Source: Dialister sp. CAG:486 (lineage in GTDB: Bacteria; Bacillota; Negativicutes; Veillonellales; Dialisteraceae). From it: a stretch of 40,604 bases of DNA. The stretch covers positions 1-40,604 of the forward strand of contig FR879610.1 of the NCBI GenBank assembly GCA_000434475.1. Reading direction: 5' to 3'. Every line of letters begins with the position of its first letter. Positions within the stretch are counted from its first letter, which is position 1. The position numbers and the translations under genes are program-made. Of this stretch, positions 19,266 through 38,108 are shown piece by piece. The notes below the pieces were generated by a model. The model worked only from the letters and a program-made list of their open reading frames with translations. It was not told the origin of the DNA and did not search any database.

Positions 19266-20660
19266 ATGGACCTCACGAAGTATCATTCATTCCATTTCAT
19301 AGGGATCGGCGGTATGGGCATGCGTGCGCTGGCCGTCATTCTGCTCGATAAGGGGGAGCGCATTTCCGGTTCCGATGTGGCAGACTCTCCCTTTCTGCGC
19401 GATTTCCGAAAAAAAGGCGCAGAGATCTATATCGGGCATGAAGCGTCTCATGTGAAGGGCGCAGACTGCGTCGTCATTTCTTCGGCGATCTCCGAAGAAA
19501 ATCCAGAGCTTCTGGAAGCGAGACGTCTTGGCATCCCCGTATTCCATCGCTCCGACGTGCTGGCGGCCATGTTCCACTGGGGCAAAGGCATCGCTGTCGC
19601 AGGCGCACATGGGAAATCCACGACCTCTGCCATGGTGGGACAGATCTTCTATGAAGCAGGCAAAGACCCGACGATCGTTCTCGGGGCGGCAGCCAGCTAT
19701 ATCGGAGGAAATTCCTGTCTGGGAAAGGGCGAGTATGTCATCGCGGAAGCGGACGAAAGCGACGGCTCTTTCCTGAAATTTTCCCCTTATATGACGGTGG
19801 TGACGAATATTGAGGATGACCATCTGGATCATTATGGCAGCGTCGAAAATATCCGCCGTGCATTCTCCGAATTTATCAGCCATATCTGCTATGAGGATGG
19901 CGTCGCCATCGTATGCACAGACAGCGAAGGCGTCTGTGCGATCCTGCCCGAGATCCATAAGGCCTGCATCACCTATGGCCTCAATGAAAAAGCAGACTAT
20001 CGGGCCGTGAACAAGCGATACGAAAAGAGACATCTGCTTTTCGATGTGGTGCATGAGGGAAAGACGCTCGGCACCATCGAGCTTCAGATCCCGGGGTCGC
20101 ATAATATCCGTGATGCGCTTGGCGCCGTGATCGCAGCGCTCTACTGCGGCATCCCGATGGAAACGATCGAGACGGCGCTGTCTCACTTCGTGGGAGTGAA
20201 GCGTCGCTTCGAGACGAAATCCAGAGAAAATGATCTCTGGGTGGTCGATGACTATGCACACCATCCGACAGAGATCAAAGCGACTCTGAAAGCAGCGAGA
20301 GAGACAGGCGATCACCGCATCATCTGCGCCTTCCAGCCGCACCGCTATTCCCGCACGCAGCTTCTGCAGCAGGAGTTTGCCGAAGCATTCGATGATGCAG
20401 ATGTACTCTTCTTCACCGATATCTATGCGGCGAGTGAGGCACCGATCGAAGGTGTCGACGGACATCTGATCCCCTCACTGGTCCATCAGCGTCTGCCGGA
20501 AAAGGAGATCCACTATGTGGATACGGTGGGAGGCATGTCTCAGGCGCTTTACGACTTTGTAAAGCCGGGAGATATGATCATCACCATGGGCGCCGGCAGT
20601 ATTTACCGCGCAGGGGAAGAGCTCATTCAGTTGGTGAAGGATAAAGGGTTGAAAAAGTGA
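19266..20660 (+). CDS. murC: UDP-N-acetylmuramate-L-alanine ligase
   Basis: The product is 464 aa. MurC adds the first residue (L-Ala) of the stem peptide to UDP-MurNAc. The N-terminal Rossmann motif is FIGIGGMGMRALA (11-23), the P-loop GAHGKSTT from 113, followed by EADESDGSFL, NIEDDHLDHYGS, and the C-domain DDYAHHPTEIKATL and FQPHRYSRT. AAAGGAAG lies just before the ATG. Its stop overlaps the GTG start of ddl by four bases (GTGA), showing translational coupling. murB, which follows murC in many bacteria, is not here. Confidence 0.98.
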   Translation: MDLTKYHSFHFIGIGGMGMRALAVILLDKGERISGSDVADSPFLRDFRKKGAEIYIGHEASHVKGADCVVISSAISEENPELLEARRLGIPVFHRSDVLAAMFHWGKGIAVAGAHGKSTTSAMVGQIFYEAGKDPTIVLGAAASYIGGNSCLGKGEYVIAEADESDGSFLKFSPYMTVVTNIEDDHLDHYGSVENIRRAFSEFISHICYEDGVAIVCTDSEGVCAILPEIHKACITYGLNEKADYRAVNKRYEKRHLLFDVVHEGKTLGTIELQIPGSHNIRDALGAVIAALYCGIPMETIETALSHFVGVKRRFETKSRENDLWVVDDYAHHPTEIKATLKAARETGDHRIICAFQPHRYSRTQLLQQEFAEAFDDADVLFFTDIYAASEAPIEGVDGHLIPSLVHQRLPEKEIHYVDTVGGMSQALYDFVKPGDMIITMGAGSIYRAGEELIQLVKDKGLKK

Positions 20661-27327: not shown

Positions 27328-28629
27328 ATGAAAACAATCAATATTGCACTCCTTGGCTTCGGCACCGTCGGAAGCGGCGTCGCTGAAACCATCAAAAGAA
27401 ACAGCCAGATGATGGCAGAACAGCTGGGCTGTCAGTTGAAAATCACCTATGTACTGGTGCGTCATCCGGACAAGTACAAAAATGTACCTCTCTTGGAAGG
27501 TGTCCATCTGACATCCTCTTTTGAAGAGATCATGGCCGACCCCGATATCGGCATCGTAGTCGAAGTCATGGGAGGCATCCATCCGGCCAAGGAGTATATC
27601 TTTGAGGCACTCAATCACAAAATGAGCGTCGTCAGTGCCAATAAGGATGTCGTGGCGCTCTTTGGACCGGAGATCATGCATACCGCGATGGAGAATCATG
27701 TGAATTTCTCCTGCGAAGCCAGTGTCGGTGGCGGTATCCCGATCCTTCGTCCGCTGCACGATTCCCTGGCGGCGAATGAGATCGAAAGCATCGTAGGCAT
27801 CGTGAACGGGACGACGAATTTCATTCTTTCCAGTATGGACGAAGAAGGCGTCAGCTACTCGGATGCTCTTCGCGTGGCGCAGAAGAAGGGCTTTGCAGAA
27901 GCCGACCCGACCAATGACGTCTGCGGCTACGACGCAGCTAGAAAGCTCGCGATCCTCGCCTCCATCGGCTTCCGTGCGAACGTCACTTTTGATGACGTAC
28001 TTGTCGAAGGCATCGAGAAGATTTCCCAGAAGGATGTACAGTATGCAAGTGAGATGGGTTATGCCATCAAGCTGCTCGCTGTCGGTACCCGGCAGGACAA
28101 TGGCATCGCGCTCAATGTCTATCCGGCCTTCGTACCGCGTACCCATCCGCTCGCTTCCGTCAAGGGCTCCTACAATGCGATCTATGTCACCGGCAACATC
28201 GTCGATGACGTCATGTTCTACGGACGCGGCGCCGGTTCGCTCCCGACGGCCAGTGCGGTCATGGCAGATGTGATCTCCACCGCGAAACACATCATGAATG
28301 GCTCCACAGGCACCGGCATGATGCTGACGGAAACCAAGCGCATCCCATTCTACTCTTCCCTGAAGCTGAAGAACTCCTACTACTTCCGCTTGATCGTCGA
28401 CGATGTGACGGGCGTCCTCTCCCAGATCGCTTCTGCTTATGCCGACCATGACATCAGCATCAAGGAAGTCGTGCAGAAGAGCCGCTTCGAGGACGCAGCT
28501 GAACTGATGATCATCACGCAGGATACGCCTCGCGAAAATATCATTCAAGTCGAAAAAGCCCTGCAGGTCCTGCCCTGCATGCGCCAGGTCGCGAACATTG
28601 TGAGGGTCATGAATGATGACAGAGAATAA
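27328..28629 (+). CDS. hom: Homoserine dehydrogenase
   Basis: The product is 433 aa, the usual monofunctional length with a C-terminal ACT domain. It reduces aspartate semialdehyde to homoserine, the branch point to threonine and methionine. The nucleotide-binding motif is LLGFGTVGSGVAE (9-21); SANKDVVA, CEASVGGGIPILRPL, GIVNGTTNFILS and EADPTNDVCGYDAARKLAIL are family signatures. The ACT domain (about 350-425, LIVDDVTGVLSQIASAYADH) suggests feedback by threonine. CAGGAGGAG is an excellent ribosome site. It overlaps thrB by 17 bases. Confidence 0.98.
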   Translation: MKTINIALLGFGTVGSGVAETIKRNSQMMAEQLGCQLKITYVLVRHPDKYKNVPLLEGVHLTSSFEEIMADPDIGIVVEVMGGIHPAKEYIFEALNHKMSVVSANKDVVALFGPEIMHTAMENHVNFSCEASVGGGIPILRPLHDSLAANEIESIVGIVNGTTNFILSSMDEEGVSYSDALRVAQKKGFAEADPTNDVCGYDAARKLAILASIGFRANVTFDDVLVEGIEKISQKDVQYASEMGYAIKLLAVGTRQDNGIALNVYPAFVPRTHPLASVKGSYNAIYVTGNIVDDVMFYGRGAGSLPTASAVMADVISTAKHIMNGSTGTGMMLTETKRIPFYSSLKLKNSYYFRLIVDDVTGVLSQIASAYADHDISIKEVVQKSRFEDAAELMIITQDTPRENIIQVEKALQVLPCMRQVANIVRVMNDDRE

Positions 28630-29627: not shown

Positions 29628-29700
29628 GCTTGAAAGGTTTTGTTAGTTCTGAACTGCAGCGGTTGGCTGCATGTTTATCATTAGATAATTACAGCGAATG

Positions 29701-29709
29701 TGATACAAT
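29701..29709 (+). promoter_or_regulatory. Extended -10 promoter of the LysR gene
   Basis: TGATACAAT is an extended -10 element 44 bases before the ATG at 29754. The -35 region is weak. It is the first promoter signal of the accessory block. Confidence 0.5.
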
Positions 29710-29753
29710 TGATTAAAATGAATCTCATCCTTTATAAGAAGCGGAGGAAACTT

Positions 29754-30644
29754 ATGGATTTGCGATATTTACAAACCTTTAAGGAGATCGTACGTGAGGG
29801 GAGTTTTTCTGGTGCAGCTAGAAAGTTATCTTATACCCAATCGACAATTACCTTTCATATGGATCAGCTTGAAAAGGAGCTGGATACCATGCTCTTTGAA
29901 AAAGTGGGACGGCGCATGGTGCTGACAAAGGCGGGAGAAGAGTTTATTCCTTATGTAGAAGAAGTTTTATCTGCACTGGATAAGATGAAAAATTTTCAGT
30001 CCGACTTGGCAGAGTGTAAAGGAACGCTTCGACTGGGAGCACCGGAATCGCTATTATGCTTTCGCTTTCCGCAGATTTTGAAGGTTTTCCATCAGCGAGC
30101 TCCTAGAGTTCATCTGTACTTACGCTCTATGAATAGTCGAAATGTGCAGGAGGCATTAAAAGATGACCAGATCGATATAGGGGCCTTCTACTTGAATGAA
30201 CAGGATGTGGATGACAGCTTGGTGTGGGAGAAGGGAGGGACCTATCCACTGGTTCTCTTTGGTTCACCTCGGATAAAACGAACGTATAGCGATTTTGTTA
30301 CACCTCATCAAGATTTTCCCCTGTTATCTGCCATTGTACAGCCAATGCCGGGTTCTCTGGGACGAAAATTTAATGCTTATTTGGAGGAGAAAGATATTCA
30401 TTTAGGAAATATGATTGAAATCCGCAGTACCCAGACGATTATCAATTTGGCAAAGAATGATGTGGGGATTTGTTATTTGCCTAGATTTGTGGTGGAGAAG
30501 GAGCTTCAAACAGGGGAACTGGTGGAACTGGAAACGGATATGAAGGCAGCTCCCATTTCTTCCGCTTATGGGTATCGGAAAAATAAATGGATCAGCCCAG
30601 CGATCAAATTGTTTCTGGATATATTGAAGGGACATTGTCTTTGA
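29754..30644 (+). CDS. LysR-family transcriptional regulator
   Basis: The product is 296 aa. The N-terminal winged helix-turn-helix (about 1-60: MDLRYLQTFKEIVREGSFSG, AARKLSYTQSTITFHMDQLE) is followed by a linker helix and a periplasmic-binding-like effector domain (about 87-290, starting GTLRLGAPESLL). GCGGAGG supports ATG 29754 rather than the upstream in-frame ATG at 29700. It lies upstream of, and in the same direction as, the nitrogenase-like gene, which has its own leader. It probably controls the uptake block; its effector could be the imported ligand or a metal-linked metabolite. Base composition is AT-richer than in the flanking core genes. Confidence 0.93.
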   Translation: MDLRYLQTFKEIVREGSFSGAARKLSYTQSTITFHMDQLEKELDTMLFEKVGRRMVLTKAGEEFIPYVEEVLSALDKMKNFQSDLAECKGTLRLGAPESLLCFRFPQILKVFHQRAPRVHLYLRSMNSRNVQEALKDDQIDIGAFYLNEQDVDDSLVWEKGGTYPLVLFGSPRIKRTYSDFVTPHQDFPLLSAIVQPMPGSLGRKFNAYLEEKDIHLGNMIEIRSTQTIINLAKNDVGICYLPRFVVEKELQTGELVELETDMKAAPISSAYGYRKNKWISPAIKLFLDILKGHCL

Positions 30645-30766
30645 TTGGATGTAAGATGGCTCCGATTACAATGATGCAAGATCAATCTTTAACCATTATT
30701 CAATTTTTCTGAATTAATTCTTTCAATTCTTCAATTTGATAGAACGAAATATTTTCATTAAAATAG

Positions 30767-30799
30767 TATAAGTGATATGTGGGCGATATATGGGATAAT
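30767..30799 (+). promoter_or_regulatory. Promoter region of the nitrogenase-like gene with shared GGGCGAT box
   Basis: TATAAG (30767-30772) lacks a good -35, which suggests activator dependence. Around the expected start site are GGGCGAT (30781-30787) and GGGATAAT (30792-30799). The same pair, GGGCGAT then AGATAAT, lies at the same place downstream of the TonB-receptor -10 box (35484-35508). A half-site-like CTTCAATTTGATAGAA lies just upstream (about 30730). Confidence 0.4.
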
Positions 30800-30836
30800 T
30801 AAAGCAGAAAAATAAAATGAACGGAGAGGAGTTACT

Positions 30837-32378
30837 TTGAAGACGATTCAAGCTGAAAAACGCTCTAAAGCAGAAATTGCCATGACGAGATTTTGGAAGC
30901 GTAAAGATGTCATGGTGGTAGCGGCAGGTTCCATTCCCTGTATTCGGGAGTTATATATCTTAGCGAAAGAAATGGGGACTTTGCATCAATTTCGTTATGT
31001 CAGTTTGACAAATTCGGATTATATTCTGGGTAGTGCGGAAGATATGATCCGAGAAGCCTTAAGAAAGGCCGCTCTTGTGCCCGGTGTTCAGGTGGTAGTT
31101 TTTTACTTGTCTTGCCTGGATATTTTAGTACGGCTGGATTTCCATCATTTGGAAGAAAACTTATATAAGGAAACGGGGGTGCTTGTAAAATGCTTTTACC
31201 GGGGACCTTTGGGGAAAGAAGAAAAAGAACGCCTGGATGCGGATACCTTTTTGCGTACTTTTCCTAAAGAAGCCGGTACAATCATTCAATTATCAGACCA
31301 ACTACCGCCACCTGTATCTGATGGAGCCGGAATTTCTGATTGGATGCGGCGTCATGGATGGGCGAATGTACTGGTTACACCAGCAGGGTGTCGCAGCTGC
31401 ATGAGTGATTGTGATATGACAGAAGACCAGAAGCACGTGTACTATCCGACTGTTGTGACCCGTGATTTCGTCTTTGGCATGGAAGATACGACGAAAAAAC
31501 AGACAGATGCTTTGTTGAAGCAAACAAAGCTTTCCGGAGTTTCCCTCATTGGCACGGCCGTACCATCATTTATAGGCATGGATGGCGAGAGTGTGGTAGA
31601 TAGTCTTTGCGAGAAAGACTACCAGGCGGTGTATTGGGAAGCGGATGGATTTCATGATGCTCTCTATGGGGTCAGTCAGGCGGAATTGCAGCAGGTCAGA
31701 TGTAAGGCGAATTGGCTTTTAAAAGAGAAGAAGAAAGTGGTGCAGATTTTGGGGTACAGTCCGCTTTTAGCGGGTCATATGACAGACCTCGAAGAGGGAC
31801 TTTCTTTCTTGCGCCAACTGGGATATGAAGTGATTTTTGACGGACAACAGGCGGCAAGAAACGTTCCTGCCCTGAATTGGGTTGTATCTACCGCTGGGAT
31901 TGCTGCCGCAAGGTGGATGCAGGAAAGGTTACAAACCCCCAGTATCATATCTCGCCCATTGGGAGATCATGCCTGGTCCACATGGAAGAAGCAGGTGCAG
32001 GAACTTTTGCGGGACGGAAAAGGCGAACGGAAATTACAGATTCATCGGATGGACATTCCTAAAAAGTATGAGGAGCATATCCTTTTTATAGGAGAACCGG
32101 TGCAGATTATGGGAGCTGCTCATGCACTTTGGCACGAAGGCTATGCCCAGATTCGATTGTCTTCCTTGGCTTGGTCGAAAGAATCGGAAAAGCTCATCCG
32201 AAGTGCTCCTGGCGGAGATACTTTCCATATTTTGCGAAATATGTCTGATTTAGTAAAAGAACGAGATTGGGCAGATGTTGTCTATTGTGATCCGTGGTTA
32301 TTTCCTTTCTTTAGTGGAAAGAAAACTGTCTCTATGCCTTGGGGGTTGATTTCAGGAAGGACAGGGCTTAGTCGTTAG
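30837..32378 (+). CDS. Nitrogenase component 1-like oxidoreductase, role unknown
   Basis: The product is 513 aa, with no signal peptide, so cytoplasmic. The first 125 residues follow the pattern of the NifD/NifK/BchN/CfbD superfamily: a glycine loop with Cys35 (AAGSIPCIREL, like the GPVGC segment), DYILGSAEDMIREAL (61-75, like the family's DIVFGGEEKLxxAI), and FYLSCLDILVRLDF (89-102, Cys93) followed by a YRGPLG turn. A second Rossmann-like half has VVQILGYSPLLAG and LRQLGYEVIFDG. The N-terminal P-cluster cysteine segment seems to be missing. CRSCMSDC (Cys185, Cys188, Cys192) is an extra cluster-like motif. It lies 68 bases before a FecB-type gene. A reductive or scaffold role on an imported tetrapyrrole or metal chelate is inferred. 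No NifH-like partner is present. Confidence 0.7.
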   Translation: MKTIQAEKRSKAEIAMTRFWKRKDVMVVAAGSIPCIRELYILAKEMGTLHQFRYVSLTNSDYILGSAEDMIREALRKAALVPGVQVVVFYLSCLDILVRLDFHHLEENLYKETGVLVKCFYRGPLGKEEKERLDADTFLRTFPKEAGTIIQLSDQLPPPVSDGAGISDWMRRHGWANVLVTPAGCRSCMSDCDMTEDQKHVYYPTVVTRDFVFGMEDTTKKQTDALLKQTKLSGVSLIGTAVPSFIGMDGESVVDSLCEKDYQAVYWEADGFHDALYGVSQAELQQVRCKANWLLKEKKKVVQILGYSPLLAGHMTDLEEGLSFLRQLGYEVIFDGQQAARNVPALNWVVSTAGIAAARWMQERLQTPSIISRPLGDHAWSTWKKQVQELLRDGKGERKLQIHRMDIPKKYEEHILFIGEPVQIMGAAHALWHEGYAQIRLSSLAWSKESEKLIRSAPGGDTFHILRNMSDLVKERDWADVVYCDPWLFPFFSGKKTVSMPWGLISGRTGLSR

Positions 32379-32446
32379 TGGCTTTCAAATGAAGGGTTTT
32401 CTGAGTTGTTGGCTTATTTTTCTATATGAGTTAAAGGAGAATATCG

Positions 32447-33547
32447 ATGAAATACATACAGAAAGCTATACTTTTTGCTGCTTTAGCAGGAGCGATTGCT
32501 GTTTTTGGAGGGTGTGGAAGTACGGAGAATCAGCAGCCTGTGGCACCGGCAAAGACGGTCACCATTACGGATGTGACAGGGAGACAGGTGGAAATGCCAG
32601 CGGTGAAGAAAATGGCTGTTGTACCGCTTCCATGGGCTTCCGTGGTATATGCCCTGGATGGCAATGCCGATCGATTGGGCGCCGTTCATCCAGGGGCTAT
32701 GTCAGCTTATAAAGGACACTTCCTGGAAAAAATGGACAGTCACTTTGGTCAACTGGATGCCAAAATGATTGGACAGGATTTTTCTATCCATGCGGAAAGT
32801 TTAGCGAATGCAGGCATCGACAGCGCTGTGCTTTGGTCTTATCAAGAAAAAGATGCCGATAAGCTGAAACAAATCGGGATTCCTACTGTCATGATCAATA
32901 ATGACAGTGTAGATACCTTGAAAAAGAGCTTCCTCATTGTTGGGCAGATGCTTGGAAAAGAGGATCGGGCAAAACAGCTCAATGCTTACTATGATCATGC
33001 GTATAGTGAAATCACAGCTCACAAAGCAGAGGTAGAAAAAGCAGATAAACCAACGATCCTGTTTTTGAAAAACAGCAAGCTGCGTCTCCAAGGCAATAAT
33101 AATTTTATTCACGAAGCCATTCAAATTGGCGGTGGTGCCAATCCATTTGAGCAGGAAGCAAACTCAGACAGCAACAAAGATATTTCAATGGAAGAAGTGT
33201 ATCGCATCAATCCGGATATTATTCTTCTGAGTAATTTTGATACCTTTATTCCGGACGATTTATATGAAAATAGAATTCCTGGACAGGATTGGAGTACCGT
33301 GAAGGCAGTTCAGAATCACCACGTATATAAAGTACCGATGGGTATATACCGCTGGGATGCACCAGGGGTAGAGACACCGCTCATGATGAAATGGTTGGCC
33401 ACCCTCTTACAACCTGAAATTTTCAAAAATATTGATGTGAGAAGAGATACCAAGGCTTTTTATAAAGATTTCATGCATTATGATTTGTCTGATGAAGATC
33501 TGTCTATGATCTTTGCGGATAAAGAGAATCAAAATAGCCGCTGGTGA
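32447..33547 (+). CDS. ABC importer substrate-binding lipoprotein (FecB/BtuF type)
   Basis: The product is 366 aa. The signal peptide ends in a lipobox, AVFGGC with Cys23, so it is a membrane-anchored lipoprotein. The mature part is a periplasmic-binding fold of the iron-siderophore, heme or cobalamin class (PF01497-type): TVTITDVTGRQVEMP at the start, IGIPTVMINNDSVDTLKKSF in the middle, and MEEVYRINPDIILLSNFD with W..VKAVQNHHVYKVP in the C-lobe. AAAGGAG precedes the ATG. Permease and ATPase genes follow directly. The ligand cannot be read from sequence; the TonB receptor downstream suggests an iron chelate or tetrapyrrole. Confidence 0.92.
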   Translation: MKYIQKAILFAALAGAIAVFGGCGSTENQQPVAPAKTVTITDVTGRQVEMPAVKKMAVVPLPWASVVYALDGNADRLGAVHPGAMSAYKGHFLEKMDSHFGQLDAKMIGQDFSIHAESLANAGIDSAVLWSYQEKDADKLKQIGIPTVMINNDSVDTLKKSFLIVGQMLGKEDRAKQLNAYYDHAYSEITAHKAEVEKADKPTILFLKNSKLRLQGNNNFIHEAIQIGGGANPFEQEANSDSNKDISMEEVYRINPDIILLSNFDTFIPDDLYENRIPGQDWSTVKAVQNHHVYKVPMGIYRWDAPGVETPLMMKWLATLLQPEIFKNIDVRRDTKAFYKDFMHYDLSDEDLSMIFADKENQNSRW

Positions 33548-33572
33548 ATGATATGTGTTTGAAGGAGATCTT

Positions 33573-34595
33573 ATGAATACTATCACGGAGAGGAAATTTC
33601 ATTTTCTCATGATGCTGCTGATTTTTGCGTTATTGATGATGGCGGTGTGCAGTATCAGTCTAGGGAGATATTATATTTCACCTGTTCATGTGGTGAAAAT
33701 TATCCTGGCTCCTCTGTATCCCATGGTACAGGATTGGTCGAATCAAGCCAGCAGCGTTATTTATACACTCCGTCTCCCCCGGGCTTTAGCTGCTATGATG
33801 ATTGGAGCCGCTTTGTCTTTATCCGGGGCATCTTACCAGAGCGTATTTAAAAATCCTCTAGTGGCACCAGATATGCTGGGAGTGTCATCCGGTGCTTGTG
33901 TAGGCGCTTCCTTGTGCATTCTTCTTGGATTCTCTCAGGCAGGAGTCCAGGGAGGGGCTTTTGCCGGTGGTCTTCTGGCTGTTTTCCTGGCGGTGTCGAT
34001 TCCACGCATCATAGGGAAAAATTCTATTGTTATGCTGGTGCTTTCCGGCATTATTGTGAGTGGCCTCACGGGTTCTCTTTTGGGAATTATAAAGTACCTG
34101 GCAGATAGCGATACCCAATTGCCTGCTATTACATATTGGCAGCTGGGGTCACTTGTTTCTGTGGTTTGGACGAATTTGCTATCTAGCGGAGTGCCTATCT
34201 TACTTTGCATGATTTTCATGATGCTCATTCGCTGGCGGATGAATATTCTGACACTATCCGAAGAAGAAAATCATATGTTAGGGAAACACAACGGATTCCT
34301 CAGGTATGCAGTGATTCTTTGCGCTACCATTCTGACAGCCTGCTCCGTTTGTATCACCGGGACCATTGGCTGGGTAGGATTGGTCATTCCTCACTTTTCT
34401 CGCATGATGGTAGGACCGGATAATCGCAAGTTATTACCCATTGCCATGGTACTTGGCGCCTTATTTCTTCTTTTTATTGATACTTTATCCAGAGCAGCAC
34501 TGGAAGCAGAAATTCCGCTCAGTATTTTGACAGGCCTGGTAGGTGCGCCTTTCTATTTCTATTTATTGGTACGGCAGAGGATGAAGTTATCATGA
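33573..34595 (+). CDS. ABC importer permease, FecCD family
   Basis: The product is 340 aa with about ten hydrophobic segments. FecCD signatures include YTLRLPRALAAMMIGAALSL, SGASYQSVFKNPLVAPDMLG (about 86-105), and near the C-terminus GTIGWVGLVIPHFSRMMVGP and LLPIAMVLGALFLLFIDTLS. GAAGGAGATC supports ATG 33573 over the GTG at 33555. As one permease gene is present, the transporter would be a homodimer, as in BtuC. The ATPase gene overlaps its stop by four bases. Confidence 0.95.
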   Translation: MNTITERKFHFLMMLLIFALLMMAVCSISLGRYYISPVHVVKIILAPLYPMVQDWSNQASSVIYTLRLPRALAAMMIGAALSLSGASYQSVFKNPLVAPDMLGVSSGACVGASLCILLGFSQAGVQGGAFAGGLLAVFLAVSIPRIIGKNSIVMLVLSGIIVSGLTGSLLGIIKYLADSDTQLPAITYWQLGSLVSVVWTNLLSSGVPILLCMIFMMLIRWRMNILTLSEEENHMLGKHNGFLRYAVILCATILTACSVCITGTIGWVGLVIPHFSRMMVGPDNRKLLPIAMVLGALFLLFIDTLSRAALEAEIPLSILTGLVGAPFYFYLLVRQRMKLS

Positions 34596-35374
34596 AACTG
34601 GAAGTGAAGAATTTGTCCTTTGGGTATCAGAAAGGACAGCATTTATGGGAAAATGTTTCTTTTACGGTAAAGAAAGGAGAAATATTTTCCATTCTAGGGG
34701 CCAATGGAGCGGGCAAGTCCACTTTGCTTCGGAGCATCATTGGATTCCTGCATCCTGAGACAGGCAGTGTATTCTTTGAAGATGATGAAGGGAATCGATA
34801 TGATGCCTTCGAGGCAGGGAGTGATTTTACCAGCCATATCGGTTATGTACCCCAGATGCAGGATAATGCCTACTCTTTCGCTCTAAAAGATTATGTGCTT
34901 TTGGGGTGTGCCCCTCATTTGGGCTTATTCCAATCTCCTTCTAAAGAATATGAAGACAGAGCAGACACTGTTATGGCAGAGATGGGGATTTATGATAGAA
35001 GGGATCAACCTTTCAATACGCTCTCCGGCGGGCAGCAACGGCAGGCAGTCATTGCGCGTGCCATTCTGCAGCAGCCAGATATGATTGTCATGGATGAACC
35101 TACGAATCATCTCGACTATGGGAATCAATACCGGGGCATACAAATGATAGAAAAATTAGCAGACAGAGGCATAGCGGTGATTCTCACCACCCATATGCCT
35201 GACCATGCCCTGTATCTGGGAGATCATACGGGACTTCTCATTCATCATCAACTTCTTTGTGGTAAAACAAAAGAAGTGATCAATGAAATGCATCTCTCTG
35301 ACATGTATAAGATCCCTGTAAAAATGGTTTATGTCAAAGAAGCCAAACGGGTGATTTGTTTCCCTGCTATTTAA
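34592..35374 (+). CDS. ABC importer ATP-binding protein (FecE/BtuD type)
   Basis: The product is 260 aa. It powers the FecCD-type permease from the cytoplasmic side. Walker A GANGAGKST (36-44), Q-loop YVPQMQ (about 85-90), signature LSGGQQRQ (144-151), Walker B MIVMDEP (164-170) with D-loop NHLD, and switch His in TTHMPDHA are all intact. The start overlaps the permease stop (ATGA). A perfect terminator follows at 35376, so the nitrogenase-like gene and the three transporter genes probably make one transcript. Confidence 0.95.
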   Translation: MKLEVKNLSFGYQKGQHLWENVSFTVKKGEIFSILGANGAGKSTLLRSIIGFLHPETGSVFFEDDEGNRYDAFEAGSDFTSHIGYVPQMQDNAYSFALKDYVLLGCAPHLGLFQSPSKEYEDRADTVMAEMGIYDRRDQPFNTLSGGQQRQAVIARAILQQPDMIVMDEPTNHLDYGNQYRGIQMIEKLADRGIAVILTTHMPDHALYLGDHTGLLIHHQLLCGKTKEVINEMHLSDMYKIPVKMVYVKEAKRVICFPAI

Positions 35375-35375
35375 T

Positions 35376-35409
35376 AAAAGCAGTAGACCACGAGAGGTCT
35401 ACTGCTTTT
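35376..35409 (+). terminator. Rho-independent terminator after the ABC operon
   Basis: AAAAGCAGTAGACC, ACGAGA loop, GGTCTACTGCTTTT: 14 perfect pairs ending in a T tract, just after the ATPase stop codon. Confidence 0.92.
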
Positions 35410-35471
35410 TGATGGGTTAACAAATCAGAAGATCCGTTATGAGTACGGTTATTCTGTTTCTATTCGTAAAC

Positions 35472-35508
35472 TATAATAAAGTCGGGCGATGTCCTGTAGT
35501 GAGATAAT
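35472..35508 (+). promoter_or_regulatory. Promoter region of the TonB-receptor gene with shared GGGCGAT box
   Basis: TATAAT (35472-35477) has only a weak -35 (TTATTC at 35449-35454). GGGCGAT (35484-35490) and AGATAAT (35502-35508) follow, matching the arrangement before the nitrogenase-like gene. The two transcripts of the block may thus share a regulator. Confidence 0.45.
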
Positions 35509-35510
35509 AC

Positions 35511-35555
35511 TTTTACAAATTTGAATCATTCATTCAATAATTCAAATTTGTAAAA
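35511..35555. promoter_or_regulatory. Perfect 16-bp inverted repeat in the TonB-receptor leader
   Basis: TTTTACAAATTTGAAT (35511-35526) and ATTCAAATTTGTAAAA (35540-35555) are exact reverse complements around a 13-base loop. The site is AT-rich, lies between the likely -10 box and the start codon, and could be an operator or an RNA hairpin controlling receptor expression. Confidence 0.55.
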
Positions 35556-35636
35556 TCGTCAATAAAATAGTACATTATATTTAGTGAAGCGCTTTTTGTT
35601 TCAAACATTCTGTTAATTATCTGGGAGGAATCTAGG

Positions 35637-37802
35637 ATGACAGGGAAAAGAAAATTGGTTATGGCTTTGACGGCTGTATTGGCATTGACTGGGGGAATCA
35701 GTGGACAAGCCGCATTCAGCAATACATTGGACGAAGTCATTGTCACTGCAGAGAAAGATCAAGTGGAAGCGAAAGTATTGCCCAGTGGTTTCGAAAGAGA
35801 AGAAACCTCTTTCGGATTGACAGGGGAGCAGGACATTATGACAGTGCCCTATACGGCCCAGAGCATTTCAGCGAAATCCATCGAAATGATGGCTGCTCCT
35901 ACAGGACAAATCGGACAGGTGCTCACCAATGTACCCTCCATTCGCACCGGGACTTCGCTGATTAAGACCGATTTTTCCATGCGTGGCATGCTCGCGAATG
36001 GTTCTGCCATGTATTTGAATAATATTCCTAGTTTCTACACCATGTGCATTGGGCCAGTTACAAACACCATTGAACGGGCAGATGTATTGGTAGGACCTGC
36101 AGCGACGCTCTCTGGTTCTGTGCAATCCGATAATGGACCGGATGGTGGGCAGCCTGGGTCTGTGTACCTCTACACCAAACGGGCCGGTGAAGCAGATTTC
36201 AATCATGTGACCCTGTCTAACAGTGGCTATGGTGACTGGGGGGAACAGTTTGATATCAGCCGTACTAAACTGGGAAGTGATGGATCTTGGGGTGTCCGTG
36301 TATATGGCATGCATGATAAAGGCGGGATGTCTATTTCAGGAGCCAGAAGAGAGAAGAACAATATCTCTGTAGATGTGTCTCATGAAACGGAAAAAAGCAA
36401 AACCAATTTCTATGCGGGTTATGTGGATGAACGATTGAACGGCACAGAACGACGCTTCGCGATTTCCCGCAATTCTCGTTGGGTGCCTAAGGCTCCCGAT
36501 GCCAGCAAGAGTTATGATGATCCCAATGCCATGTACAGTGACTGGTATGGCTGGCAGACGACCCTAAACCACGAGCAGAAAATAAATGACAACTTGAGCT
36601 GGTTCCTCAATGCAGGAATGAATGATATGACCAATCGGCGTATGATTTATAAAAGCCAAATTACGATTGATGATATGGGAGATATTAAGAAAACAAAGAT
36701 CTGGTCTCAGTATTTTCTTTTGAAAAACAAATATGCGCAGGCTGGCTTGAAATGGAAGGTCCATACGGGTGCTGTAGAACATAACCTGGTATTCTCTGTG
36801 GATCGTTCTCATCGTATTATGTATAACAACAATACCCATATCGATGGGTTCAATGAACATGTATCCGGGAATATTTACACCGGTATTCATTTTAAGCCAT
36901 CCATTTATGATTTTGATAATGCGTATTCTCTGGGCAAAATGTTCATGTACCAGGAAATGGATACCAGCTTGAATTTCATGGATACCATGAAAGCCGGGAA
37001 ATGGTCCATTTTAGCGGCTGGTACTCGTCGTCATGGGAATTACAGAGGCAAGAAAGCGGCTAATAACATCAAAGACAACCAGTTCTCTCCGACTTTCGGT
37101 GTTTCTTATCAGCCAAATGAAAATCTGTCTTTCTATGGTGCCTATGCAAAATCTACTACGAGAGGCGTACCGGTTTCCGACCCAACGTATCAGAATAATG
37201 GCGAAATCCTGGATGCTGTGAAAGTGACACAGAAGGAAGTTGGCGTGAAATATAAATGGGATAAAATGTATGCTACTATTTCCTATTTTGATACCACACA
37301 GCCGCAGTATCTGGATGTGAAAAAGCAGGGGAAAACTTTCTATTTACTGGATGGTAAGAATCATTACAAAGGCATCGACTTCAATATCACAGGACAAATC
37401 GCTAAAAAATGGAATGTTTTTGGTGGCTTTGAATATTTGAATGCTAAAGTAGAAGGTGGTACTTATGATGGCTGCCATACGGATAGTTCTGCGAAATGGA
37501 GTGCTGTATTGGGAATGGAATATATGCCAAATGCGGACTGGAGCATTTCCGGTCGCATGAACTATGTGGGGAAAGGCATTATTAATAGAACCGATAAAAC
37601 AGAATTAGAAGTACCGTCATCTACCGTAGTGGATCTCTTTGCAAAATACAAAACCAGCTGGGGGGATGTGCCTGTGACTCTGTCTGCTGGCTGTTACAAT
37701 GTATTCAACCGCAGCTATTGGGCACTTCAGCCAGGTCAGGACAATAAACTTCTTCTTTCCTCGCCAAGATCTTTCATCTTGTCCGCTTCCTTTGATTTCT
37801 AA
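35637..37802 (+). CDS. TonB-dependent outer-membrane receptor (siderophore type)
   Basis: The product is 721 aa. A signal peptide (about 1-26) is followed by a TonB box DEVIVTA (32-38), a plug domain (about 55-185, with MTVPYTAQSISAKSIEMM, FSMRGM, IERADVLVGPAATLSGS and a PGSVYLYTKRA end), and a 22-strand-type barrel rich in alternating aromatic strands. It ends in Phe (SFILSASFDF), the outer-membrane assembly signal. It resembles the siderophore-receptor subgroup, but the ligand is unknown; a heme or other tetrapyrrole is possible. GGGAGGAATCTAGG precedes the ATG. It has its own leader but surely works with the FecBCD-type importer upstream. tonB/exbBD are not in the window. Confidence 0.95.
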   Translation: MTGKRKLVMALTAVLALTGGISGQAAFSNTLDEVIVTAEKDQVEAKVLPSGFEREETSFGLTGEQDIMTVPYTAQSISAKSIEMMAAPTGQIGQVLTNVPSIRTGTSLIKTDFSMRGMLANGSAMYLNNIPSFYTMCIGPVTNTIERADVLVGPAATLSGSVQSDNGPDGGQPGSVYLYTKRAGEADFNHVTLSNSGYGDWGEQFDISRTKLGSDGSWGVRVYGMHDKGGMSISGARREKNNISVDVSHETEKSKTNFYAGYVDERLNGTERRFAISRNSRWVPKAPDASKSYDDPNAMYSDWYGWQTTLNHEQKINDNLSWFLNAGMNDMTNRRMIYKSQITIDDMGDIKKTKIWSQYFLLKNKYAQAGLKWKVHTGAVEHNLVFSVDRSHRIMYNNNTHIDGFNEHVSGNIYTGIHFKPSIYDFDNAYSLGKMFMYQEMDTSLNFMDTMKAGKWSILAAGTRRHGNYRGKKAANNIKDNQFSPTFGVSYQPNENLSFYGAYAKSTTRGVPVSDPTYQNNGEILDAVKVTQKEVGVKYKWDKMYATISYFDTTQPQYLDVKKQGKTFYLLDGKNHYKGIDFNITGQIAKKWNVFGGFEYLNAKVEGGTYDGCHTDSSAKWSAVLGMEYMPNADWSISGRMNYVGKGIINRTDKTELEVPSSTVVDLFAKYKTSWGDVPVTLSAGCYNVFNRSYWALQPGQDNKLLLSSPRSFILSASFDF

Positions 37803-37932
37803 ATCAGATTCGGCTATTCAATCAATGTTTCCTTAAGCAGCAGATGTGAGTCCAGTTTTGTGCGCTAATATGGGAGACATGCTAGAAATCATGTATCATT
37901 AATGAATGAGAAACTGAGTCATATCCGCAAAG

Positions 37933-37964
37933 AAAAAACTCCATGCGAAGGCATGGAGTTTTTT
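37933..37964. terminator. Terminator after the TonB-receptor gene
   Basis: AAAAAACTCCATGC, GAAG loop, GCATGGAGTTTTTT, with A and T runs on both sides, so it can also end the minus-strand ilv transcript. The core hairpin matches that at 29591-29627. Confidence 0.9.
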
Positions 37965-38108
37965 GTGTGCGGATCCGTGTGAACAGGGAAGCCCCATGGG
38001 CAGGCCGAAAGGAGGATACGAACAAGTCAGAGATCAGATATCAGACGTTAGGCATCTGACACTTGACAACTGTCATTTGTCGCCTCATCCCTAGCCGCCA
38101 GACACTCA
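37965..38108. other. Intergenic stretch with degenerate CAGATATCAGACG words
   Basis: The 306-base gap between the receptor gene and ilvB holds a worn end of the 159-bp element (TTCAATCAATGTTTCC at 37817-37832), the terminator at 37933, and from about 38028 a run of related words (CAGAGATCAGATATCAGACG, GCATCTGACACTTGACAAC) like those between murD and murG. I see no gene. Confidence 0.5.

What the first reader, a model, noticed from the sequence alone, without database searches (positions are those of the whole stretch)
29640..37965. Accessory uptake block built around a lone nitrogenase-like protein
A LysR regulator, a nitrogenase-component-1-like protein, a FecB/FecC/FecD-type importer and a TonB-dependent receptor lie in one direction, in AT-richer DNA than the flanks (counted by eye: 25/60 GC at 30421-30480 and 27/60 at 36961-37020, against 36/60 at 20101-20160 and 35/60 at 28441-28500; one block line, 30001-30060, had 32/60). 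Known nitrogenase-like enzymes outside nitrogen fixation reduce tetrapyrroles (BchNB/ChlNB, CfbCD). A cytoplasmic member cotranscribed with an iron-chelate or tetrapyrrole-type importer suggests reductive processing or metal release of the imported ligand. I know of no characterised system of this composition.
Basis: partly seen in the sequence, partly recalled or inferred. Interest (0 to 1): 0.85.

Follow-up and report, generated by a model that had tools for sequence, protein, structure and literature searches.

The report
One-chain nitrogenase relative with metal-chelate importer
A bacterium, probably one of the Negativicutes, carries a shrunken, single-chain relative of the nitrogen-fixing enzyme next to an importer for large metal-binding molecules; some relatives of this gene set are switched by a vitamin B12 sensor, which hints that it helps take in and process B12-like molecules rather than fix nitrogen.

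Summary
The block is real and AT-rich (GC 0.434 against 0.539). The 513-aa protein 30837-32378 is a nitrogenase component-1 homologue with an architecture I found no description of: residues ~1-155 are an alpha subunit's first domain (best matches NifE, NifD, BchN), ~152-513 a whole beta subunit (best match BchB). Three predicted cluster cysteines (C35, C93, C185) are kept in 63, 64 and 64 of 64 aligned rows. In sister loci of Bacillota, NifH, alpha and beta stand with FecB/C/E; alpha there has three domains or, repeatedly, two. The fused clade keeps only the first, and the cognate NifH is missing from all 12 genomes found with the single chain. The importer is adjacent in 11 of 12 such loci. 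The window's importer belongs to another lineage than that of Selenomonas, whose single chains are the closest found in genomes; both importer lineages include operons directly behind cobalamin riboswitches, one encoding an intact single chain. Best reading: uptake of a corrinoid (or another metal chelate) with Fe-S-dependent reductive processing in the cell. Reduction, electron donor and ligand are inferred, and the window has no riboswitch. The pairing with ABC transporters was noted in 2012; the fused, NifH-less form and the B12 link I did not find in print.

The parts
29754..30644 (+). LysR-type regulator; a LysR gene of the same profile lies next to the block in 9 of the 12 single-chain genomes (in G123 on another contig, in G058 a weaker match further off, in G006 none)
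   Evidence: PF00126/PF03466; neighbourhoods
30837..32378 (+). single-chain nitrogenase component-1-like protein (513 aa), TTG start
   Evidence: PF00148 E 1.1e-12; AlphaFold2 model pLDDT 93.1, pTM 0.93
30837..31301 (+). residues 1-155: alpha-type domain 1
31290..32375 (+). residues 152-513: complete beta-type chain
30939..30941 (+). Cys35 codon, predicted cluster ligand (C in 63 of 64 rows)
31113..31115 (+). Cys93 codon, predicted cluster ligand (C in 64 of 64 rows)
31389..31391 (+). Cys185 codon, predicted cluster ligand (C in 64 of 64 rows)
32447..33547 (+). periplasmic binding protein, FecB/PF01497 (lipobox-like signal by eye)
   Evidence: its close relatives (E <= 1e-60) occur in 20 of 380 Negativicutes genomes
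33555..34595 (+). FecCD-type permease (PF01032); best NCBIfam model BtuC, below its cut-off; ATG start possible at 33573
34592..35374 (+). ABC ATPase (FecE/BtuD-like)
35637..37802 (+). TonB-dependent receptor; nearest solved sequences BauA and FemA

Best explanation
The block is a dedicated uptake-and-processing system. A TonB receptor and a FecB/C/E importer bring in a large metal chelate, most likely a corrinoid (cobalamin-type cofactor or precursor). In the cytoplasm the nitrogenase-like protein binds it in the three-domain cleft of its beta part and passes low-potential electrons to it from a [4Fe-4S] cluster held between the alpha-type and beta-type first domains by C35, C93 and C185 (plus perhaps a non-cysteine ligand), so that the metal or its upper ligand is reduced before use. 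The protein descends from a NifH + alpha + beta enzyme of the same kind of importer operon; alpha was eroded to its cluster domain and fused to beta, and the operon's own NifH was lost. Electrons would come from ferredoxin/flavodoxin or from a NifH of another locus. Shown: architecture, cysteine conservation, relation to NifH-alpha-beta operons, importer linkage, absence of the cognate NifH from the 12 single-chain genomes found, riboswitch control in some relatives. Inferred: order of the evolutionary steps, cluster, ligand, reduction, donor.
For: Architecture. Descent: fused and split forms are one side of a branch (100/99), with beta subunits of NifH-alpha-beta operons on the other; alpha of 268-273 aa (two domains) in 10 of 20 hits. 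Linkage: FecB/C/E adjacent in 11 of 12 single-chain loci, in two gene orders besides the window's, and all three within the fetched stretch in 12 of 15 NifH-bearing loci from a Bacillota sample; FecB subfamily in 16 of 18 genomes with the system against 4 of the other 362. Corrinoid: a cobalamin riboswitch directly in front of the operon in G112 (intact single chain), G109, G305, G099, G464, G084, and probably G123 across a contig break; the window's importer is in one clade with that of G112 (100/100; FecB 61%, FecC 70%). Use: dN/dS 0.19-0.26 between Selenomonas copies. Precedent: FepBCD/BtuCDE-like transporters in an operon behind a cobalamin riboswitch in Dehalobacter, up 346-fold on corrinoid starvation (PMC4285132, passages).
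Against: No riboswitch in the window (none at gathering score; none relevant up to E = 5) nor in front of the operon in the 8 Selenomonas loci, which have LysR instead; none in G006, G058, G041, G039, G093, and none at three importers of the same FecB subfamily without the nitrogenase-like gene (L125-L127). The receptor is nearest to BauA and FemA, siderophore receptors, and no B12-receptor model was listed for it up to E = 1. BtuC/BtuF models match far below their cut-offs. Two loci of a more distant branch (L090, L095) have a molybdenum/tungsten riboswitch, so the ligand may differ within the superfamily. In the G112/G109/G123 group, which has no NifH, 2 of 3 genes are damaged, as if function were fading there. 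No cluster, ligand or activity was measured.
Confidence: 0.4

Rival explanations
1. Ferric-siderophore or heme uptake with reductive iron release: the nitrogenase-like protein plays the part of a ferric-siderophore reductase.
For: Receptor closest to BauA and FemA and to TIGR01783 TonB-siderophor (204 bits, cut-off 223.5); binding protein nearest to PGF-type and IsdE models; no riboswitch in the window itself.
Against: Cobalamin riboswitches on the operons of 6 relatives, 7 with the one across a contig break. Receptor family is a weak guide to ligand.
Confidence: 0.26
2. Metal import for cofactor assembly: the importer feeds a metal to a NifEN-like scaffold, as Dos Santos et al. 2012 suggested for such pairs.
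For: NifE is the top (tied) match of the alpha domain; the pairing is noted in PMC3464626 section 12; Mo/W riboswitches near the operons of L090 and L095.
Against: No partner enzyme that would receive the cofactor was recognised in the block; the window protein lacks alpha domains 2-3, between which the cofactor sits in NifD (recalled).
Confidence: 0.14
3. Non-redox chaperone or storage protein: after losing NifH the protein only binds the imported ligand and hands it on; the cluster is structural.
For: No cognate NifH in any of the 12 single-chain genomes, no NifH at all in 3; alpha eroded; damaged genes in the NifH-less group.
Against: Cluster cysteines kept in 63-64 of 64; the two split relatives inside the fused clade still have a NifH gene in the locus.
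Confidence: 0.18

Closest known systems
Nitrogenase-like pairs with two alpha and one beta cysteine (Mlab_1040/1039, Dhaf_1539/1540) and nitrogenase-like/ABC-transporter loci (Dos Santos et al. 2012, PMC3464626)
   Same: same cysteine pattern by their description; co-location with ABC transporters in some (e.g. Methanocorpusculum labreanum); PF00148
   Different: theirs are separate alpha and beta subunits; here alpha is reduced to one domain, fused to beta, and no NifH is in the locus. Their proteins were not compared by sequence here
DPOR BchNB/BchL
   Same: fold; beta part closest to BchB; cluster between first domains of two chains (recalled)
   Different: no BchL, no separate BchN; one DPOR cluster ligand is an aspartate (PMC3464626), here the beta position is Cys185; TIGR01278 13.9 bits against cut-off 490
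CfbCD (Ni-sirohydrochlorin reductase)
   Same: nitrogenase-like tetrapyrrole reduction is the model for the proposed chemistry
   Different: CfbD is a full single-type subunit working with CfbC (recalled); TIGR03282 16.1 bits against cut-off 268
Methylthio-alkane reductase MarHDK
   Different: full alpha and beta with P-cluster and cofactor; no Fec importer (recalled)
BtuB/BtuFCD corrinoid uptake
   Same: receptor + binding protein + one permease + ATPase; BtuC is the best NCBIfam model for the permease; cobalamin riboswitch in relatives
   Different: below all Btu cut-offs listed; receptor siderophore-like; nitrogenase-like partner

Membership tests
PF00148 nitrogenase component 1 | profile match over the curated cut-off | tested here: met
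   48 bits against 28.6
PF00148 nitrogenase component 1 | nitrogenase-type fold | tested here: met
Nitrogenase (NifDK) | separate full-length alpha and beta, with FeMo-co site in alpha | tested here: not met
   one chain; alpha domains 2-3 absent
DPOR (BchNB) | TIGR01278 equivalog score | tested here: not met
   13.9 bits against 490
CfbD | TIGR03282 equivalog score | tested here: not met
   16.1 bits against 268
2+1-cysteine nitrogenase-like pairs of Dos Santos 2012 | two conserved alpha Cys, one conserved beta Cys | tested here: met
   C35, C93 and C185 against the paper's description
2+1-cysteine nitrogenase-like pairs of Dos Santos 2012 | separate alpha and beta subunits | tested here: not met
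   one chain
2+1-cysteine nitrogenase-like pairs of Dos Santos 2012 | NifH gene in the locus | tested here: not met
   none in the window nor in the 12 single-chain loci; the profile's only hit there, in L047, is weak (E 2e-6) and its genome has no true NifH
2+1-cysteine nitrogenase-like pairs of Dos Santos 2012 | Fe-S cluster | not testable with these tools
   needs spectroscopy
BtuFCD corrinoid importer | BtuC/BtuF equivalog cut-offs | tested here: not met
   BtuC 197 of 461 bits, BtuF 19 of 234 bits
BtuFCD corrinoid importer | transports corrinoid | not testable with these tools
   only indirect: riboswitch on related importers
TonB-dependent siderophore receptor (TIGR01783) | cut-off 223.5 bits | tested here: not met
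   204 bits, narrowly below; 129-195 bits in 6 relatives

The most novel reading that the evidence does not exclude
A nitrogenase-superfamily corrinoid-processing enzyme, a new class of large-macrocycle substrate beside protochlorophyllide, chlorophyllide and Ni-sirohydrochlorin, reduced by evolution to one chain (alpha cluster domain + beta) that works without a Fe protein of its own.
Probability: 0.26. Interest if true: 0.87.

Novelty: new variant of a known kind. Interest (0 to 1): 0.62.

Why it matters
It suggests how far the nitrogenase scaffold can be cut down: present-day forms range from NifH + three-domain alpha + beta, through two-domain alpha, to a single chain with only the cluster-binding domain of alpha. 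That gives a small target in which to ask what the minimum electron-transfer unit of the superfamily is and whether it can run without the ATP-driven Fe protein. The riboswitch link gives a concrete, testable substrate class for a branch of nitrogenase-like proteins whose function was called open in 2012, in Negativicutes that include oral Selenomonas.

Tried and rejected
Identity of the organism: acetolactate synthase is at most 70% identical to any of 380 Negativicutes genomes (19 matched at E <= 1e-200), so the genus is not clear. Chance hits of the single query against solved structures (flagellar hook protein, chloroperoxidase) were discarded. A local RNA signal in the window: none credible; a motif search gave 2 hits with one mismatch, and 12 of 100 shuffles did as well. 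The riboswitch next to the Selenomonas flueggei locus (L002) faces away and serves a sodium:sulfate-type symporter, so I did not count it. Electron donors in the locus: a flavin-reductase-like protein (29.2 bits, cut-off 27) follows the block in L001, but the downstream neighbours tested in L004, L005 and L043 are not related to it, so it is not taken as part of the system. A 949-aa Fe-S/FAD protein beside the importer in L125 (run through Pfam and NCBIfam; a frame of the same size stands in L126) is not taken as a partner either. One script crashed and the next used a wrong seed sequence; both were replaced. NifH enrichment among single-chain genomes (9 of 12 against 179 of all 380) is weak and confounded, since genomes without the system have that NifH too. 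In print: full-text searches showed no title or abstract on the fused form or the cobalamin link; the library lacks most subscription journals, and I opened only four papers.

One search was made for this check.
Full report
OBSERVATION. Frames, strands and domain families are confirmed, the GC counts are exact and the AT-richness is strong and sharply bounded. No tRNA or RNA family at gathering score lies in the window. The composition gap is particular to this window: in the ten relatives measured the cluster has about the same GC as its flanks or a higher one (0.562-0.628 in nine loci, 0.427 in L047), so the block looks recently acquired here (inference).

ORIGIN. Of 380 Negativicutes genomes, 132 have some match to the family profile at E <= 0.001; 12 have the single chain (G001-G006, G058, G112, G123, G128, G134, G240), of which G123 has one internal stop and lies on a short contig. 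Two genomes (G041, G039) have a form split behind the second first domain (277 and 291 aa) plus a domain 2-3 protein (267 and 339 aa), with a NifH in the locus. G305, G099 and G093 have NifH + separate alpha (416-424 aa) + beta. In a sample of 398 Bacillota genomes 24 match at E <= 1e-20; the single chain appears in 3, all Negativicutes already known. I fetched 15 of the 24; the other 9 are those 3 and 6 more Negativicutes (G139, G140, G239, G338, G341, G345), of which G239 and G341 had been looked at. All 15 have a NifH and two nitrogenase-like chains or pieces of them: in L092 alpha falls below the profile threshold but aligns, and in L095 both chains are broken frames. FecB, FecC and FecE are all found in the stretch in 12 of 15; L095 lacks a FecB hit, L097 and L088 show only an ATPase. 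In a beta tree of 47 rows (26 fused, chosen from those held; G093's cut beta, L002, L004, L044 and L048 left out) all fused and split forms together are one side of a branch with 100/99 support; the split pair lies inside them next to G058 and G112. The root is drawn at the midpoint, so the direction of change is an inference. The free alpha of G464 has 273 aa, two domains, and this is not an assembly slip: of 20 homologues 10 have 268-273 aa and end at the same place, 9 have 402-444 aa, and one is a 154-aa piece. I read this as loss of alpha domains followed by fusion, although the two-domain alphas need not be direct ancestors.

NIFH. NifH (E <= 1e-40) is present in 179 of 380 Negativicutes genomes. 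With all candidates scored, 9 of the 12 single-chain genomes have exactly one true NifH; G006 (a 1.5-Mb MAG), G112 and G123 have none. Those nine all fall in one NifH clade (12 rows, 99/96), which also holds genes of G305, G099 and G041, and all nine lie beside another nitrogenase-like protein; the NifHs of the nearest alpha-beta loci and of the split forms form a different clade (8 rows from 6 loci, 100/99). The cognate NifH is therefore missing from all 12. The gene is still under constraint (dN/dS 0.19-0.26 in six Selenomonas pairs, three of them near saturation in dS, against 0.07-0.18 for the permease). Against a vigorous NifH-free function: in the G112/G123/G109 group, which has no true NifH, G123 carries a stop and G109 an apparent deletion that took FecE and the front of the gene.

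IMPORTER LINK. FecB, FecC and FecE are adjacent in 11 of 12 single-chain loci (not in L006), and the TonB receptor in 7 of 12; gene order differs between the window, Selenomonas and G058/G112, which argues against mere inheritance of synteny. The FecB subfamily of the window (E <= 1e-60) occurs in 20 of 380 genomes; 16 of these are among the 18 genomes that I count as having the system (12 single-chain, G109, 2 split, 3 alpha-beta; more distant nitrogenase-like genes counted as without), against 4 of the other 362 (Fisher p 1e-22, uncorrected for relatedness). Of those 4, G084 keeps a 109-aa frame that matches the start of alpha, and three have the importer alone. The window's operon is mosaic: compared with the loci in genomes, its single chain, LysR and receptor are closest to Selenomonas (39, up to 49, and 61% identity) but FecB/C/E to G058, G112, G123, G041 and G039 (57-66%, 69-76% and 53-59%), and the importer tree places it with them at 100/100, away from Selenomonas (the program warns of a long branch, A_L090, near this group). 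The single chain is thus paired with two importer lineages.

LIGAND. A cobalamin riboswitch stands directly in front of the operon in G112 (single chain; 108.8 bits; 174 bases before FecB, with a terminator-like hairpin between), G109, G305, G099, G464 (51 bits, just before NifH) and G084, and on the G123 contig that carries the LysR gene and ends where FecB should follow. That is 7 of 21 genomes of the fused and nearest alpha-beta lineages scanned, the window included: 6 seen and 1 across a contig break; several are close relatives (G112/G109/G123; G305/G099/G084), so the independent cases are about three. The window, the 8 Selenomonas loci, G006, G058, G041, G039 and G093 have none in front of the operon, nor have the three importer-only loci L125-L127. 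Six of the seven genomes were counted for such riboswitches and have 6 to 31 each, so placement by chance is unlikely. Both importer lineages include such operons. Among the 14 more distant NifH-bearing loci scanned (L085-L098) none has one directly in front; L090 and L095 have one further upstream with other genes between, and a Mo/W riboswitch nearer the operon, in L090 ahead of a MoeA-like gene. So corrinoid is the best-supported ligand class for this lineage, by transfer from relatives; the siderophore-like receptor (BauA and FemA nearest) is the main contrary sign. That Fep/Btu-like ABC importers behind cobalamin riboswitches are taken to serve corrinoids is the account in PMC4285132 (passages).

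MECHANISM. Proposed: receptor and importer deliver the ligand; the single chain holds a [4Fe-4S] cluster by C35, C93 and C185 between its two first domains and reduces ligand bound in the beta cleft; the product is used or its metal released. Only architecture, conservation, relationship and linkage are shown. The donor is open: ferredoxin or flavodoxin, or a non-cognate NifH where present.

KNOWN AND NEW. Dos Santos et al. 2012 (PMC3464626; section 11 whole, section 12 part 1 of 2, other passages) described the 2+1 cysteine pattern, co-location of nitrogenase-like genes with ABC transporters, and a possible cobalamin-reduction role for another group. What I did not find in print (search listings) is the alpha-domain-1/beta single chain, the loss of its NifH, the two-domain alphas, and the cobalamin riboswitches. 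PMC9147875, PMC10418091 and PMC4285132 were seen in passages only.

Noticed in passing
L052, L057, L058, L061, L062: Nitrogenase-like operons combined with HypF in L057, L058 and L062 and with HypD and a HypE-like protein in L057 and L062 (L052 and L061 show frames of similar sizes, not run through Pfam); two NifH copies in L052, L061 and L062. An association of this kind was mentioned by Dos Santos et al. 2012; its role is unexplained.
   Followed up: partly
L090 4708-4840 and L095 7730-7862: Mo/W (Moco) riboswitch near a NifH-alpha-beta-Fec operon, in L090 with a MoeA-like gene behind it, suggesting that some of these importers carry molybdenum or tungsten species.
   Followed up: partly
L124 10218-10923: Cobalamin riboswitch followed by a 109-aa frame matching the start of alpha and then FecB-C-E: it looks like a decayed copy of the system with the importer kept.
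   Followed up: yes
L054 7209-9825: Degraded locus in G109: an apparent deletion removed FecE and the front of the nitrogenase-like gene; the riboswitch remains.
   Followed up: yes
L058 238-2700; open frames of 794-876 aa in G239, G238, G140, G271, G139: Long frames matching the family; the 820-aa frame in L058 matches both the alpha-type and the beta-type parts of the profile, which may be a full alpha-beta fusion, another architecture.
   Followed up: no
L001 17023-17613: Flavin-reductase-like protein just behind the block in Selenomonas noxia, a possible electron donor; a frame of the same length lies behind the block in L002 (15428-16018, not run through Pfam).
   Followed up: partly
L049 12027-13127, L050 6065-7165: A 366-aa protein (L049 copy without any Pfam family), by eye with a signal sequence and the look of an outer-membrane barrel, as first gene behind the cobalamin riboswitch in the NifH-alpha-beta-Fec operon; it may be the outer-membrane pore for the ligand.
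   Followed up: partly
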